DNA from: Anaeromyxobacter diazotrophicus
Lineage (GTDB): Bacteria > Myxococcota > Myxococcia > Myxococcales > Anaeromyxobacteraceae
Length of the DNA: 64,000 nucleotides
Direction: 5' to 3'
Assembly (NCBI RefSeq): GCF_013340205.1
Contig: NZ_BJTG01000010.1
Span: 62,001 to 126,000, forward strand
In this document: positions 55,154-64,000 of the stretch, piece after piece
Numbering within the stretch: the first letter of the stretch is position 1
Layout: each line of letters starts with the position of its first letter
The notes under the pieces: generated by a model
Database searches by the model: none
Seen by the model: the letters and a program-made list of their open reading frames with translations, nothing else
What the model was told of the DNA's origin: nothing
Position numbers and translations under genes: made by a program

Positions 55154-56347
55154 ATGCTCCTCCTCGCCTTCGCCCTCACCTTGGTCGCGGCCGTGCTCGT
55201 CTCGGCGCTCGCCGAGCGGACGGTGCTCTCCACGGCGGTGCTGTTCCTGCTCGCGGGCGCCGCGGCGCAGCTCGTGCTGCGCCCGGACGTCCGGGCGATC
55301 GTCGGCCCGCTGGCGGAGGCGGCGCTCGTGATCGTCCTCTTCACGGACGGCGCCCAGCTCACCACGCGCGAGCTCCGCCAGGGCTGGCGGCTCCCCGGTC
55401 GCGCGCTCCTGCTCGGGCTGCCGCTCACGGTGGCGGGGAACGCGCTCCTCGGCCGGTACGTGGCGGGGCTGGGCTGGGGCGAGGCGTTCCTGGTGGGCGC
55501 CGCGCTCTCCCCCACCGACCCGGTGCTGGCGGCGGCGGTGGTGGGCGCCCGGGAGGTCCCGCGCCGGCTGCGGCACCTGCTCAACGTGGAGAGCGGCCTC
55601 AACGACGGCCTGGCGCTGCCGCTCGTGATCGTGCTGCTGGCGGTGCTGCGGCCGGAGCGCGCGCCGCTGGGCGCGGCGCTGGGCGAGGTCGCGCTCGGGG
55701 TGGCGCTCGGGGTGGCGCTGCCGCTCGCCGTGCTGCGGCTCGAGCGGAGCCGCTTCTTCGGGGCCGCGCCGCTCTACGAGCCGCTCTCGGCGGTGGCGGC
55801 GGGGCTGCTCGCCTACGCCGCCGCCGCGGCCCTCCACGCCAACGCCTTCCTGGGCGTCTTCGCGGCGGGGGTGGTGGTGGCCACCACCGCGCCGCGCATC
55901 GCGCGCGCCTTCGCGCGGGTGGGCGAGGTGGCCGCCGAGCTCGCCAAGCTGGCCGCGATCTTCGTCTTCGGCGCGGTCCTCTCGCCGCGGCTGCTCGCCG
56001 AGATCCCGCTCTCCGGCTACGCCTACGCGCTGCTCGTCCTGCTGGTGGTCCGCCCCGCCGCGCTGGCCCTGGCGCTCGTCGGCGGGGGCCTCTCCTGGCG
56101 CGAGTGGGTGGCGGCGGCCTGGTTCGGCCCGAAGGGCTTCTCGTCGGTCGTGTACGGGCTGCTCATCCTCGCCTCGGGCCTGCCCCGCGCGCGGGCCCTG
56201 GCGCACCTCGTGGCGCTGGTGGTGGCGGGCTCGATCCTGGCCCACTCCTCGACCGACGTGCTGGTGGCGCGCTGGTTCCGCCGCGATCAGCGCCGCTCCT
56301 CGGGCGGCGCCACCCGCCCGAACGCGACCAGCAGCGCCAGGTCGTAG
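55154..56347 (+). CDS. cation:proton antiporter (CPA1/NhaP type)
   Basis: A 397-residue membrane protein with about twelve helices. The signature ALSPTDPVLAAAVVG and SGLNDGLALPLV carry the conserved Asp of Na+/H+ antiporters. Other blocks: FLVGAALSP and the late GPKGFSSVVYGLL. It likely exchanges Na+ or K+ for H+ across the inner membrane. The C-terminal 61 bp overlap the convergent MFS gene, unusual in length for this window. Confidence 0.92.
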   Translation: MLLLAFALTLVAAVLVSALAERTVLSTAVLFLLAGAAAQLVLRPDVRAIVGPLAEAALVIVLFTDGAQLTTRELRQGWRLPGRALLLGLPLTVAGNALLGRYVAGLGWGEAFLVGAALSPTDPVLAAAVVGAREVPRRLRHLLNVESGLNDGLALPLVIVLLAVLRPERAPLGAALGEVALGVALGVALPLAVLRLERSRFFGAAPLYEPLSAVAAGLLAYAAAAALHANAFLGVFAAGVVVATTAPRIARAFARVGEVAAELAKLAAIFVFGAVLSPRLLAEIPLSGYAYALLVLLVVRPAALALALVGGGLSWREWVAAAWFGPKGFSSVVYGLLILASGLPRARALAHLVALVVAGSILAHSSTDVLVARWFRRDQRRSSGGATRPNATSSARS

Positions 56348-57543
56348 AGGATCTTGAGCCCCCCGGCGATGAAGAAGGGCAGGCTCGCCAGCGCCGGCGC
56401 GGCGTAGAGGGGCCCGGCGGCGAGCGGCGAGAGCGCGGACCCGACGGTGCGCGCGATGCCGGTCACGCCGGCCGCGGCCGACCGCTCGCCGGGGTCGACC
56501 ACCGCCATGGTGAAGGACTGGCGGGTCGGCACGTCCATCTGCGAGATGGAGAAGCGCAGGAAGAGGACCGCCATGGCGAGCGGCAGGGTCGGCATGAGCG
56601 GCACGAGGAACAGGAGGACGTTCGACGGCAGGTGCGTGAACACCATGGTCCGGACGAGCCCGATCCGGCGCGCCACCCACGCCGCCGAGAGCGCCGACAC
56701 GCCGGCGAGCACGTTGGCGCCGAAGAAGATGGCGCCGAGCAGCGCCGGGTCGGCGCCGAAGCGGCGGTGGAACCAGTAGGCGACGAAGGCCTGCACCACG
56801 AACCCGCCGGCGAAGGCGTCGACGCTGAAGAGGGCCGAGAGCTTCAGCACCACCCCGCGCGAGCTGGAGAGCCCGAGGCTGCGCTGCAGGAACGAGGGCC
56901 GCCCCGGGGGCGCCGCCCGGCGGGCCGCGGGCGCCTCCACGCCGTGCGAGAGGCGCGTGAAGAGCACCCCGAGCGCCAGCCCCAGCGCGCCGTAGCCCAC
57001 CACCACCGCCCGGTAGCTGTTGAGCGGCGCCGCGCCGGCGCGCTGCAGCGCCGAGGCGAGCGCGCCGCCGGCGAGGGAGCCGAGCGCGGTGGCGAAGGAG
57101 CCGAAGAGCGTGTACCAGGCGAAGGCGCCGGTGCGCCGCTCGGCCGGGAGCGCCTCGGAGAGCGCTGCCTGCTCGATGGCGAGGAACGGCCCGACCTCGT
57201 TTCCGGCCGGGCTGATGACGCCCACCGTCGCGGCGAGCAGGAGCAGCCAGAAGTTGCCGGTGACGGCGAAGAGCGCGCCCGCGAAGACCATCAGGCCGGC
57301 GCCGGCGAGCAGCATCGCGCGGCGCCCCAGCCGGTCGGCGCGGGTGGTGAGGTAGAGCGAGATGGCGGTGTCGCCGGCCAGGGTCAGGGAGAGCAGGAGC
57401 CCGATGCGCGCCTCGGAGAGCCCCGCGGCGGCCAGGTACAGCACGAGCACCACCGAGAGGAAGCCGTAGGCGAAGAGCCGGACGGCCCGGGTCGCGAAGA
57501 GGAGCCGCACGTCGCGCGCGGCGAAGGGGGAGGTGCCGTTCAC
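56287..57543 (-). CDS. MFS transporter
   Basis: A 418-residue major facilitator protein with twelve predicted helices. It has TTRADRLGRRAMLL in loop 2-3 and ISPAGNEVGPFLAIEQAALSEAL in the middle. Close to MFS drug or metabolite exporters; substrate unknown. I chose the GTG at 57541-57543, since a TATACG hexamer lies 7 nt upstream; an in-frame ATG at 57574-57576 would add eleven residues. The C-terminus overlaps the convergent antiporter by 61 bp. Confidence 0.85.
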   Translation of the reverse strand: MNGTSPFAARDVRLLFATRAVRLFAYGFLSVVLVLYLAAAGLSEARIGLLLSLTLAGDTAISLYLTTRADRLGRRAMLLAGAGLMVFAGALFAVTGNFWLLLLAATVGVISPAGNEVGPFLAIEQAALSEALPAERRTGAFAWYTLFGSFATALGSLAGGALASALQRAGAAPLNSYRAVVVGYGALGLALGVLFTRLSHGVEAPAARRAAPPGRPSFLQRSLGLSSSRGVVLKLSALFSVDAFAGGFVVQAFVAYWFHRRFGADPALLGAIFFGANVLAGVSALSAAWVARRIGLVRTMVFTHLPSNVLLFLVPLMPTLPLAMAVLFLRFSISQMDVPTRQSFTMAVVDPGERSAAAGVTGIARTVGSALSPLAAGPLYAAPALASLPFFIAGGLKILYDLALLVAFGRVAPPEERR

Positions 57544-57550
57544 GGGCCCC

Positions 57551-57572
57551 CGTATAGCACCGCCGTTACCGT
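57551..57572. promoter_or_regulatory. divergent -10-like boxes, DUF488 and MFS
   Basis: TACCGT (57567-57572, plus strand) ends 6 nt before the DUF488 GTG. TATACG (57551-57556, minus strand) ends 7 nt before the MFS GTG. The two promoters would sit in only 36 bp between the start codons. Confidence 0.35.
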
Positions 57573-57578
57573 TCATCC

Positions 57579-61232: not shown

Positions 61233-62423
61233 ATGAACGATGACGCCCGCGCCCTCACCCGGCACCTCGCCGACCTCCTTCGCCGCGAACAGGTGGCCAT
61301 GGCCGAGTTCCTCGTCGCCCTCGCAGCGTTCGACCGCGATCGCCGATGGGTGGATCTCGGCCACACCAGCCTCTTCTACTTCCTGCACCGCGAGCTCGGC
61401 CTGTCGAAGGGCGCCGCCTTCTACCGCAAGACCGCGGCCGAGCTGCTCCAGCGCTACCCCGAGCTGATCGAGCCGCTGGGGGACGGGCGCCTGTGCCTCT
61501 CGAGTGTGGTGGAGCTCGCCAAGGTGATCACCCCCGAGAACCGGGCCGAGGTGGTGGCGCGCTTCTTCCACGCCTCGAAGCGGGAGGCGCAGGCGGTGGC
61601 GGCTGAGCTCCGCCCGCGGGAGCTCGTGCCGCTGCGGGACGTCGTGACCGCCCTCGAACCCGCCGTCCCGGCGGCCGCGGCCGCCCTCCGCGCGAGCGCC
61701 CCGGCAGCGCGCGGCGCGGCCGCAGCGGCTCCCGTCGCCGACTTGCCGGCTCGCGACTTGACCGGCGATCAACTGGTTCATCCGGATGAACCAGACTCCA
61801 CGCCTGGCTCCGCCCGAGCCGAGCAGGCCGCCACCGCCCAACCCGCGGCCCCGCCCCGGCCGCGCGACGAGGTCGAGCCGCTCACCGCCGACCTGCGCCG
61901 GCTCCACACCACCGTCTCTCGCCGCTTCCTCGACAAGCTCGCCGCCGCGCGGGACGCCCTCTCGCACGCCCAGCCCGGCGCCAGCACGGAGGCGGTGCTG
62001 GAGGCTGCCCTCGACCTCCTCCTCGCCGCCCAGGACAAGAAGCGCGCCCTGGTGAAGAAGCCCCGCGCGGCGCCGCCGCGGCCCTCCGCCGACCCGCGTC
62101 ACGTCCTGGCCGAGGTGAAGCGCGCCGTCTGGAAGCGCGACGGCGCGCGCTGCCAGTGGAGGATGGCGTCCGGCGGCATCTGCGGCTCGACCACCCGGCT
62201 GCAGCTCGATCACGTGGTGCCGGTGGCGCGCGGCGGCGCGTCGACGGTCGAGAACCTCCGCGTGTGCTGCGCCTTCCACAACCAGCTCGCGGCGAGGGAG
62301 GAGTTCGGGCCGAAGCACATGGCCCAGTTCGCGCGCGCTCCGGACGAGCAGGCGAAGCCCCGCCCCACTCTTCCAGGCACTCGAGTGGTCCACTCCGACG
62401 ACCCTGGCCTCGAGCTAGGCTGA
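61233..62423 (+). CDS. HNH endonuclease
   Basis: A 396-residue protein. A helical N-terminal domain (about 1-125, WVDLGHTSLFYFLHRELGLSKGAAF) precedes a long Ala/Pro-rich linker. Another helical part (about 195-270) follows. The C-terminal HNH domain has paired Cys (ARCQWRMASGGICGS), the HNH core LQLDHVVPVARGG and NLRVCCAFHN. The type is widespread and often multi-copy in myxobacteria and actinobacteria, where its function is unclear. A GACACT box 7 nt upstream suggests a leaderless start. Its closeness to an McrB-like gene suggests a defence locus, but the pairing may be incidental. Confidence 0.88.
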   Translation: MNDDARALTRHLADLLRREQVAMAEFLVALAAFDRDRRWVDLGHTSLFYFLHRELGLSKGAAFYRKTAAELLQRYPELIEPLGDGRLCLSSVVELAKVITPENRAEVVARFFHASKREAQAVAAELRPRELVPLRDVVTALEPAVPAAAAALRASAPAARGAAAAAPVADLPARDLTGDQLVHPDEPDSTPGSARAEQAATAQPAAPPRPRDEVEPLTADLRRLHTTVSRRFLDKLAAARDALSHAQPGASTEAVLEAALDLLLAAQDKKRALVKKPRAAPPRPSADPRHVLAEVKRAVWKRDGARCQWRMASGGICGSTTRLQLDHVVPVARGGASTVENLRVCCAFHNQLAAREEFGPKHMAQFARAPDEQAKPRPTLPGTRVVHSDDPGLELG

Positions 62424-62440
62424 GTTCGGGAGGGCCGCCC

Positions 62441-62752
62441 ATGCCACGAACTTTCCCCGTCCGCCTCACGGTTCGCCAACTCGGTCTCCTGACCAGCGCG
62501 CTCGACTCGCACATCTACTGGGAGCTCTCGGACGAGTACTACCGCCACAGCGGCTATGTCTTCGACCCGGGCAGCGACGATCCGAAGGTGCGCAAGGAGA
62601 TACGCGAGTCAGAGCGCCTCCTCTCCGTTCTTGAATGCCTCGCACTGGGTATCTGCGCAGCAAGTCCTGCCAAGCGGGCAAAGGACGGCGCCCGCAAGAG
62701 TCCCACTGCTCGAAGAACGACGGCGAAGCCCGCCGCTCGCAAGCAGCACTAG
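62441..62752 (+). CDS. small protein with basic, histone-like tail
   Basis: A 103-residue protein. The first 75 residues look folded (MPRTFPVRLTVRQLGLL, then WELSDEYYRHSGYVF), followed by a Lys/Arg/Ala-rich tail ending AARKQH that could bind nucleic acid. A strong GGGAGGG ribosome-binding site precedes the ATG. It lies 17 bp after the HNH gene and 69 bp before the AAA+ gene, on the same strand, so all three may be one transcript. Base composition is lower in G+C than the neighbours. Function unknown. Confidence 0.75.
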   Translation: MPRTFPVRLTVRQLGLLTSALDSHIYWELSDEYYRHSGYVFDPGSDDPKVRKEIRESERLLSVLECLALGICAASPAKRAKDGARKSPTARRTTAKPAARKQH

Positions 62753-62821
62753 CGGTTGCTGCCGAGTGCTCGCGATCGTTTCCCGTTCCCTCCTTCGCCG
62801 GGCCGTGCGACCTTCGCCCCC

Positions 62822-64000
62822 ATGTCCTCCCGCACCGCGTTCGATGATCTGTACGAGCTGATGGCGCTCGGCCGCGCCGCTGAGGCGGAGAAGGACGAGG
62901 TGAAGCATCGCATCGAGGCCGCCTTCAAGGAGCGCTGCCACGCGAGCGACTGGGACAAGTTCAAGACCCGGGCGTTCGTCTCGCGCGATCTGAAGGACGC
63001 GGCCTACTCCGGACTCATCATCGCGGAGAACGACGACTCCGGCGCTTACCAGGGCACCTCCTTCGTCTGGTTCCCCGGTGAAGGCGGCTCGGTCGCGGTG
63101 CTGGTCATCGGCACGGGCGGGTTCGGGCCGGATGCGCACATCCTGGCGCGGCAGGGACATCGCCGCCGGCTGCGCGCGTTGCAGCGGATCCACGGCAGCC
63201 TCTGGGTGAAGCCCGATCTACTCGACCTCGGCTCGGCGGTGCCCGACGCGGCCGCGCGCGAGTGGCCCACCATCGACAAGGCCCTGCAGACGTACAACAA
63301 GGTGATCTACGCCGCCGTCCCGGTCAGAGGAGACGCCGCGCGCTCGACGGTCCGCGACCTGCTCGACCTGTTCGTGCACGAGCACGGGGTCCGGTTCAAG
63401 GGGGCCGCCAAGGAGGAGTGGGACGAGCGCAAGCGCGAGATGCTGGCGCGCCTCTTCCCGCGGCACTCGGAGGACGAGGTCGACGCGCTCCTCGCCGAGC
63501 GGCGGTTCGTGGTGCTGCAAGGCCCCCCGGGCACCGGCAAGACGCGCTTCGCGCTGCGCGTCGCGCGACGGCATGGTGAGCCCACCTTCATTCAGTTTCA
63601 CCCCGCCCGTACCTACGAGGACTTCGTCGTCGGGCTGGCGCCGCGGCCGGCGCCGGGAGGCCTCACCTTCGAGGTGCGCCCGGGCGACCTCGTTCGCGCC
63701 AACGCCGCCGCCCGCGGGAAGGAGCACGTCCTCGTCATCGACGAGCTCAACCGCGGCGACCTCGCGCGGGTGCTCGGGGAGGCGATCACGCTCTTCGAGC
63801 CGGGCGAGCCCGACCGCGCTGTCGAGCTGCCACACGGGATCGGGCCGTCAGGGGAGCGTCGCCTTCAGCTCGAGCCCGGCCTGAGGGTGCTCGGCACGCT
63901 CAACACCGCGGACCGGTCCATCGCCCACGTCGACCTCGCCATCCGCCGGCGGTTCGCGTTCCTCGATCTCTGGCCCGACCTGGAGGTCGTGCGGGCGCAA
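62822..64000 (+). CDS. McrB-like AAA+ ATPase (C-terminus off window)
   Basis: The first 393 residues of an McrB/MoxR-type AAA+ protein open to the right edge. An N-terminal domain (about 1-220) of unassigned fold (FVWFPGEGGSVAVLVIG) probably recognises the target. The AAA+ core has Walker A GPPGTGKT (234-241), Walker B VLVIDELNRGD (303-313) and the McrB signature GTLNTADRSI (359-368). McrB motors drive the McrC nuclease in modified-DNA restriction; McrC would lie just beyond the window. Codons such as AGA, CTA and ATT are rare in the neighbouring genes, a hint of transfer. The ATG at 62822 has no ribosome-binding site. Confidence 0.9.
   Translation, partial: MSSRTAFDDLYELMALGRAAEAEKDEVKHRIEAAFKERCHASDWDKFKTRAFVSRDLKDAAYSGLIIAENDDSGAYQGTSFVWFPGEGGSVAVLVIGTGGFGPDAHILARQGHRRRLRALQRIHGSLWVKPDLLDLGSAVPDAAAREWPTIDKALQTYNKVIYAAVPVRGDAARSTVRDLLDLFVHEHGVRFKGAAKEEWDERKREMLARLFPRHSEDEVDALLAERRFVVLQGPPGTGKTRFALRVARRHGEPTFIQFHPARTYEDFVVGLAPRPAPGGLTFEVRPGDLVRANAAARGKEHVLVIDELNRGDLARVLGEAITLFEPGEPDRAVELPHGIGPSGERRLQLEPGLRVLGTLNTADRSIAHVDLAIRRRFAFLDLWPDLEVVRAQ

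What the first reader, a model, noticed from the sequence alone, without database searches (positions are those of the whole stretch)
61233..64000. McrB-like ATPase, HNH nuclease and basic-tailed protein: edge of a probable defence island
The GTLNTADRSI signature and Walker motifs mark the right-edge gene as McrB-like, with an N-terminal domain I cannot place. Upstream in the same direction lie an HNH protein and a small protein with a histone-like tail, the latter with lower G+C and rarer codons. McrB normally works with McrC; here an HNH nuclease and a basic protein precede it, which is not the classical layout. It could be a novel variant of a modification-dependent restriction system, or a chance neighbour of an Mcr operon.
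Basis: partly seen in the sequence, partly recalled or inferred. Interest (0 to 1): 0.62.

Follow-up and report, generated by a model that had tools for sequence, protein, structure and literature searches.

The report
Ordinary McrBC operon beside unrelated genes
The gene cut off at the window edge is the first half of a complete two-gene McrBC restriction operon that probably cuts foreign DNA carrying modified bases, and the HNH gene and small basic-tailed gene before it are unrelated neighbours, so the case is ordinary except that its DNA-sensing domain is an unnamed, divergent one.

Summary
Past position 64000 the McrB-like gene ends at 64285. It overlaps by 4 bp an McrC-type PD-(D/E)xK nuclease gene (64282-65733), followed by dnaE. 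In 43 loci (own included) that carry the same McrB N-terminal domain, McrC follows McrB wherever the contig is long enough, except one MAG where the two are fused and the AAA+ domain is lost. No other locus has a relative of this HNH gene or small gene nearby. The HNH protein belongs to a dispersed multicopy family (about 20 copies in this genome; found in 22 of 24 family genomes). The small protein has one relative in 195 genomes, without the basic tail and not beside an mcr gene. AlphaFold (pLDDT 95) gives a fold whose 11 best solved-structure matches are all the 5-methylcytosine-binding domain of E. coli McrB (Z 6.7-7.4; moderate). Most likely a Type IV, GTP-driven, modification-dependent restriction system with a divergent specificity domain, laterally acquired at a variable spot upstream of dnaE. 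Function untested.

The parts
62822..64000 (+). mcrB-like gene, 487 aa in all; runs past the window edge and ends at 64285 on the same contig. The mcrC-like gene follows outside the window at 64282-65733 (contig C10:126282-127733), then dnaE at 65817-69440
   Evidence: open frames, 4-bp ATGA overlap; AAA_5 and McrB matches; relatives over most or all of the length in Myxococcota. McrC: PD...DAKYK, Pfam McrBC in 33 of 34 relatives, model of a 46%-identical relative matches McrC structures
62822..63487 (+). N-terminal domain of McrB, residues about 1-222: no Pfam family; predicted fold most like the E. coli McrB 5-methylcytosine-binding domain
   Evidence: no Pfam family shared by members; pLDDT 95, pTM 0.91; 11 best VIA-align rows all McrB-N, Z 6.7-7.4, 137-142 residues aligned
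63500..63523 (+). Walker A GPPGTGKT
   Evidence: GPPGTGK[TS] in all 40 McrB proteins compared
63902..63913 (+). NTAD, the NxxD signature of McrB GTPases
   Evidence: NxxD-type motif matched in 39 of 40 McrB proteins; motif defined in PMC11090510
61233..62423 (+). HNH nuclease-like gene of a dispersed multicopy family; neighbour, not part of the system
62441..62752 (+). small orphan gene with a Lys/Arg/Ala-rich tail; neighbour, not shown to be part of the system
56287..57576 (-). MFS transporter gene, left conserved flank of the variable region (lies 133 bp from dnaE in G017)

Best explanation
This is a complete two-gene Type IV McrBC restriction operon, mcrB (62822-64285) and mcrC (64282-65733), acquired laterally between an MFS transporter gene and dnaE in a Myxococcota genome. 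Inferred mechanism, by analogy with E. coli McrBC: the N-terminal domain of McrB binds DNA carrying a modified base, probably by flipping the base into a pocket; the AAA+ domains form a GTP-driven ring that translocates along DNA with McrC bound; the PD-(D/E)xK nuclease of McrC cuts when translocation is blocked or two complexes meet. [quoted passage not shown] Inferred: GTP use, modified-base recognition, translocation and phage restriction. The upstream HNH and small genes are passengers or chance neighbours.
For: mcrC directly downstream with a 4-bp overlap. Of 40 genome loci found with the N-terminal domain alone, 36 have mcrC as the next gene; three run out of contig or nearly so (L105, L132, L137) and one (L122) is an McrB-N/McrC fusion. 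G116, G121 and the own locus, which are not among the 40, also have the pair. Foldseek E 2.9e-14 and VIA-align Z 16.6 to T. gammatolerans McrC, E 8.4e-14 and Z 13.4 to E. coli McrC; Pfam McrBC in 33 of 34 relatives; P(D/N)...D(A/S)KYK in all 34 McrC relatives listed. N-terminal fold closest to E. coli McrB-N. Patchy distribution (no other of 24 family genomes has the full-length protein) and lower GC3 (0.92 against 0.98-0.99 for MFS, histidine kinase and dnaE) fit lateral acquisition; G017 has MFS 133 bp from dnaE, an empty site.
Against: The N-terminal fold match is moderate (Z 7.4; the tool notes that Z under 8 can be a common arrangement; plain Foldseek gave no significant hit), sequence profile comparison with E. 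coli McrB-N is weak (single-pair E 0.022, probability 2%), and the methyl-contacting L68 of E. coli appears to be Ser here, so the ligand may not be 5mC. The own McrC alone gave no Pfam hit; its assignment runs through its relatives. No functional data.
Confidence: 0.9

Rival explanations
1. HNH protein, small basic protein, McrB and McrC form one four-gene restriction system, with the HNH nuclease as a second effector and the basic protein as DNA-binding adaptor.
For: All four are on the same strand with short gaps (17 and 69 bp, then a 4-bp overlap), so co-transcription is possible. HNH_2 nucleases do sit near this McrBC in a few other loci (L105, L129).
Against: None of 40 loci with this McrB has a relative of this HNH protein or of the small protein within the flanks held, up to 5 kb; no neighbour besides McrC recurs in more than a few loci. 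The HNH family has 23 strong matches in this genome against a single mcrB of this type. The small protein has one relative in 195 genomes, not next to an mcr gene. The HNH_2 proteins of L105 and L129 were not detected as relatives of this HNH protein.
Confidence: 0.04
2. The McrB/McrC pair has lost restriction function or targets something other than modified DNA, e.g. RNA or a DNA structure.
For: N-terminal domain not recognised by Pfam; CoCoNuT-type McrBC relatives are predicted to target RNA (PMC11090510).
Against: Catalytic motifs are intact and conserved across the family; the GTPase motif is NxxD rather than the NxD of CoCoNuTs, and no extra partner genes recur; the N-terminal fold is nearest to a modified-DNA-binding domain.
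Confidence: 0.06

Closest known systems
EcoKMcrBC of E. coli K-12 (McrB with DUF3578/ADAM domain; McrC with DUF2357 and PD-DxK nuclease)
   Same: Two-gene operon with mcrB upstream of mcrC; GPPGxGKT, DExNR and NTAD motor motifs; McrC fold and PD...DAKY nuclease motif; N-terminal domain predicted with the same overall fold.
   Different: N-terminal domain is about 215 rather than 160 residues, is not detected by Pfam, and is about 9% identical over the structural alignment; E. coli L68 (methyl contact) appears as an invariant Ser in a by-eye alignment; McrC is 483 aa against 348 aa, with an extra N-terminal part shared with T. gammatolerans McrC.
Thermococcus gammatolerans McrBC (PDB 6ut3-6ut8)
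   Same: Best structural match of the McrC model over almost its whole length (Z 16.6, 353 residues aligned).
   Different: Sequence identity 12%; its McrB N-terminal specificity domain was not compared here.
CoCoNuTs (McrBC-derived coiled-coil nuclease tandems, PMC11090510)
   Same: McrB/McrC pair.
   Different: CoCoNuT GTPases carry NxD; here NxxD. No recurrent extra partner genes found.
Dispersed HNH gene family of this bacterial family (for the neighbour at 61233-62423)
   Same: Same protein family: a 71% identical copy at C3:420987-422051 and about 58% to a group of further copies.
   Different: This copy is diverged from the others at DNA level (about 70%) and happens to lie next to mcrBC.

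Membership tests
McrBC (Type IV restriction) | McrB AAA+ motor with Walker A, Walker B and NxxD signature | tested here: met
McrBC (Type IV restriction) | mcrC in the same operon with a PD-(D/E)xK nuclease | tested here: met
   (Pfam and fold evidence on relatives; own McrC by homology, 46% identical to the modelled relative)
McrBC (Type IV restriction) | N-terminal specificity domain that binds modified DNA | not testable with these tools
   A separate conserved N-terminal domain exists; binding needs an assay
McrBC (Type IV restriction) | GTP-dependent cleavage of modified DNA | not testable with these tools
   biochemistry needed
ADAM/DUF3578 specificity domain (E. coli McrB-N) | Pfam DUF3578 match | tested here: not met
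   none of 39 members matches it, and no Pfam family is shared, at E <= 0.1
ADAM/DUF3578 specificity domain (E. coli McrB-N) | same fold | tested here: inconclusive
   11 best rows are all McrB-N, Z 6.7-7.4, next unrelated row 5.8; under the Z 8 that the tool treats as clear; Foldseek alone not significant
ADAM/DUF3578 specificity domain (E. coli McrB-N) | pocket residues Y64 and L68 that contact the methyl group (PMC3874153) | tested here: inconclusive
   a by-eye collinear alignment puts invariant Y76 at Y64 and invariant S80 at L68; no residue-by-residue superposition was available
CoCoNuT | NxD GTPase motif | tested here: not met
   NxxD in this protein and in 39 of 40 compared
HNH-containing hybrid McrBC system | HNH gene conserved next to mcrBC | tested here: not met
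   0 of 40 loci; multicopy dispersed family

The most novel reading that the evidence does not exclude
The N-terminal domain defines an uncharacterised branch of McrB specificity domains, with an ADAM-like fold but a remodelled pocket (Tyr kept, Leu to Ser), that reads a DNA modification other than the 5mC, 5hmC and 4mC accepted by E. coli McrB.
Probability: 0.3. Interest if true: 0.45.

Novelty: new member of a known kind. Interest (0 to 1): 0.2.

Why it matters
It resolves an apparently odd gene layout into a standard McrBC operon and removes a false lead (an HNH plus basic-protein variant). It also marks a widespread McrB specificity domain that Pfam does not recognise (Myxococcota, Gammaproteobacteria, Acidobacteriota, Verrucomicrobia, Hydrogenedentota, Chloroflexi and others) and that could be tested for the modified base it reads.

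Tried and rejected
HNH or small gene as system parts: rejected by synteny and copy number. PADLOC gave no McrBC assignment for any of the four proteins, only weak generic hits. The small protein has no match in Pfam, NCBIfam, PADLOC, PHROGs, plasmids or phages. A first scan of genome contigs with the single McrB sequence found nothing; the N-terminal alignment then worked. Foldseek alone found no significant relative of the N-terminal domain, and hhalign against E. coli McrB-N was weak. No EVE, YTH, SRA or B3 fold was listed among the best structure matches; that absence is not a test. The IscB hit of the HNH protein (NCBIfam, 26.7 bits against a cut-off of 175, HNH region only) was dismissed as a shared HNH motif.

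Full report
Observation. The three ORFs described are real. HNH protein: 61233-62423, 396 aa, Pfam HNH at residues 316-346. Small protein: 62441-62752, 103 aa, tail with 10 Lys/Arg in 31 residues, G+C 63.5% against 74.7% for the window and GC3 0.75 against 0.91-0.99 for its neighbours. McrB-like gene: from 62822 and cut at the edge; Walker A, DELNR and NTAD present; best solved relatives are E. coli and T. gammatolerans McrB.

Past the edge. The window is G000 contig C10:62001-126000, and the contig goes on for 15 kb. McrB ends at window position 64285. The next ORF, 64282-65733 (483 aa), overlaps it by 4 bp (ATGA) and is followed by dnaE at 65817. The 483-aa protein has PD...DAKYK. It gave no Pfam hit on its own, but 33 of 34 of its relatives match Pfam McrBC PF10117, and the AlphaFold model of a 46%-identical relative (pLDDT 86) matches T. 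gammatolerans and E. coli McrC (Foldseek E 2.9e-14 and 8.4e-14; VIA-align Z 16.6 and 13.4). It is McrC.

Synteny test. Among 195 genomes of the phylum, seven places outside the own genome hold an McrB alignable over most or all of its length (46-62% identity); all seven are followed by McrC. A search of genome contigs with the N-terminal domain alone found 40 loci in many phyla (five of them are loci, so 43 different loci in all with the own one). In 36 of the 40, McrC is the next gene; L105, L132 and L137 run out of contig or nearly so; L122 is a single ORF joining the first ~109 residues of McrB to McrC. No relative of the HNH protein or of the small protein lies in any of the 40, and clustering of neighbouring ORFs shows no widely recurrent partner other than McrC (small clusters of 3-4 loci include an HNH_2 protein).

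The HNH gene. It has 23 matches at E <= 1e-20 in the own genome and matches in 22 of 24 genomes of the family, up to 39 per genome (a few matches are two pieces of one gene, so about 20 copies here). Copies fall into groups with 88-95% DNA identity over 1.2-1.9 kb, reaching beyond the ORF on both sides, and several lie at contig ends, as expected of repeats that break assemblies. The copy at 61233 is diverged (about 70% DNA identity to others).

The small gene. One relative in 195 genomes (58% identity over 59 residues, G036), without the basic tail and not beside mcr genes; nothing in plasmids or phages. Its function is unknown and no link to McrBC is shown.

The N-terminal domain. No Pfam family is shared by the 39 aligned members. 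AlphaFold gives a confident model (pLDDT 95.0, pTM 0.91). Foldseek finds nothing significant, but in the VIA-align second look the best 11 entries are all E. coli McrB-N bound to DNA, Z 6.7-7.4 over 137-142 of about 155 residues, with the next row at 5.8. Together with its position in McrB, I take it as a divergent ADAM-like specificity domain (moderate confidence). A by-eye collinear alignment puts invariant Tyr76 at E. coli Tyr64 and invariant Ser80 at Leu68, the two residues reported to contact the methyl group (PMC3874153). This would suggest a changed pocket and is only a lead.

Locus history. Full-length McrB is absent from the other 23 family genomes; only one partial AAA+ match was seen. 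In G017 the MFS gene and dnaE are 133 bp apart (BLAST match ends); in the same-genus G010 the gap holds other genes (universal stress protein, ketoacyl synthase, a histidine kinase-like stretch); in G002 a C5 cytosine methyltransferase gene and an unknown ORF lie just upstream of dnaE. The spot is variable and seems to have received restriction-type genes more than once.

Mechanism. By established knowledge of McrBC (PMC3874153, PMC11090510): base recognition by the N-terminal domain, GTP-driven translocation by the McrB ring with McrC, and cleavage by McrC. For this protein, motifs and folds are shown; ligand, GTP use and phage restriction are inferred.

Taxon.

Noticed in passing
G000, 23 places, e.g. 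L012-L021; window 61233-62423: HNH genes form dispersed 1.2-1.9 kb repeat units with 88-95% DNA identity within groups, reaching beyond the ORF; contigs C3, C4, C6, C10, C12 and C14 end inside or beside such copies. Groups look mosaic: some share only the 5' part, others only the HNH 3' part. Possibly a mobile or gene-converting element family.
   Followed up: partly
L122:5007-6746 (Polyangiaceae MAG): A single ORF joins about 109 residues of the McrB N-terminal domain in frame to McrC, with the AAA+ domain missing: deletion, assembly artefact or a real fusion.
   Followed up: no
L091:9198-11699 (G002, upstream of dnaE): A C5 cytosine methyltransferase (Pfam PF00145, E 3.8e-44) and an unknown 261-aa ORF sit at the spot where the own genome has mcrBC: possible hotspot for restriction genes beside dnaE.
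   Followed up: partly
L105:863-1774, L129:9657-10427, L130:4488-4856: An HNH_2 restriction-like protein (Pfam in L105 and L129) lies near this McrBC in three loci of other phyla; its N-terminal half resembles phosphorothioate-binding domains, from memory only.
   Followed up: partly
G157 (L072 and L077): One myxobacterial MAG carries two different copies of this McrBC type (62% and 46% identical to the window's McrB).
   Followed up: no
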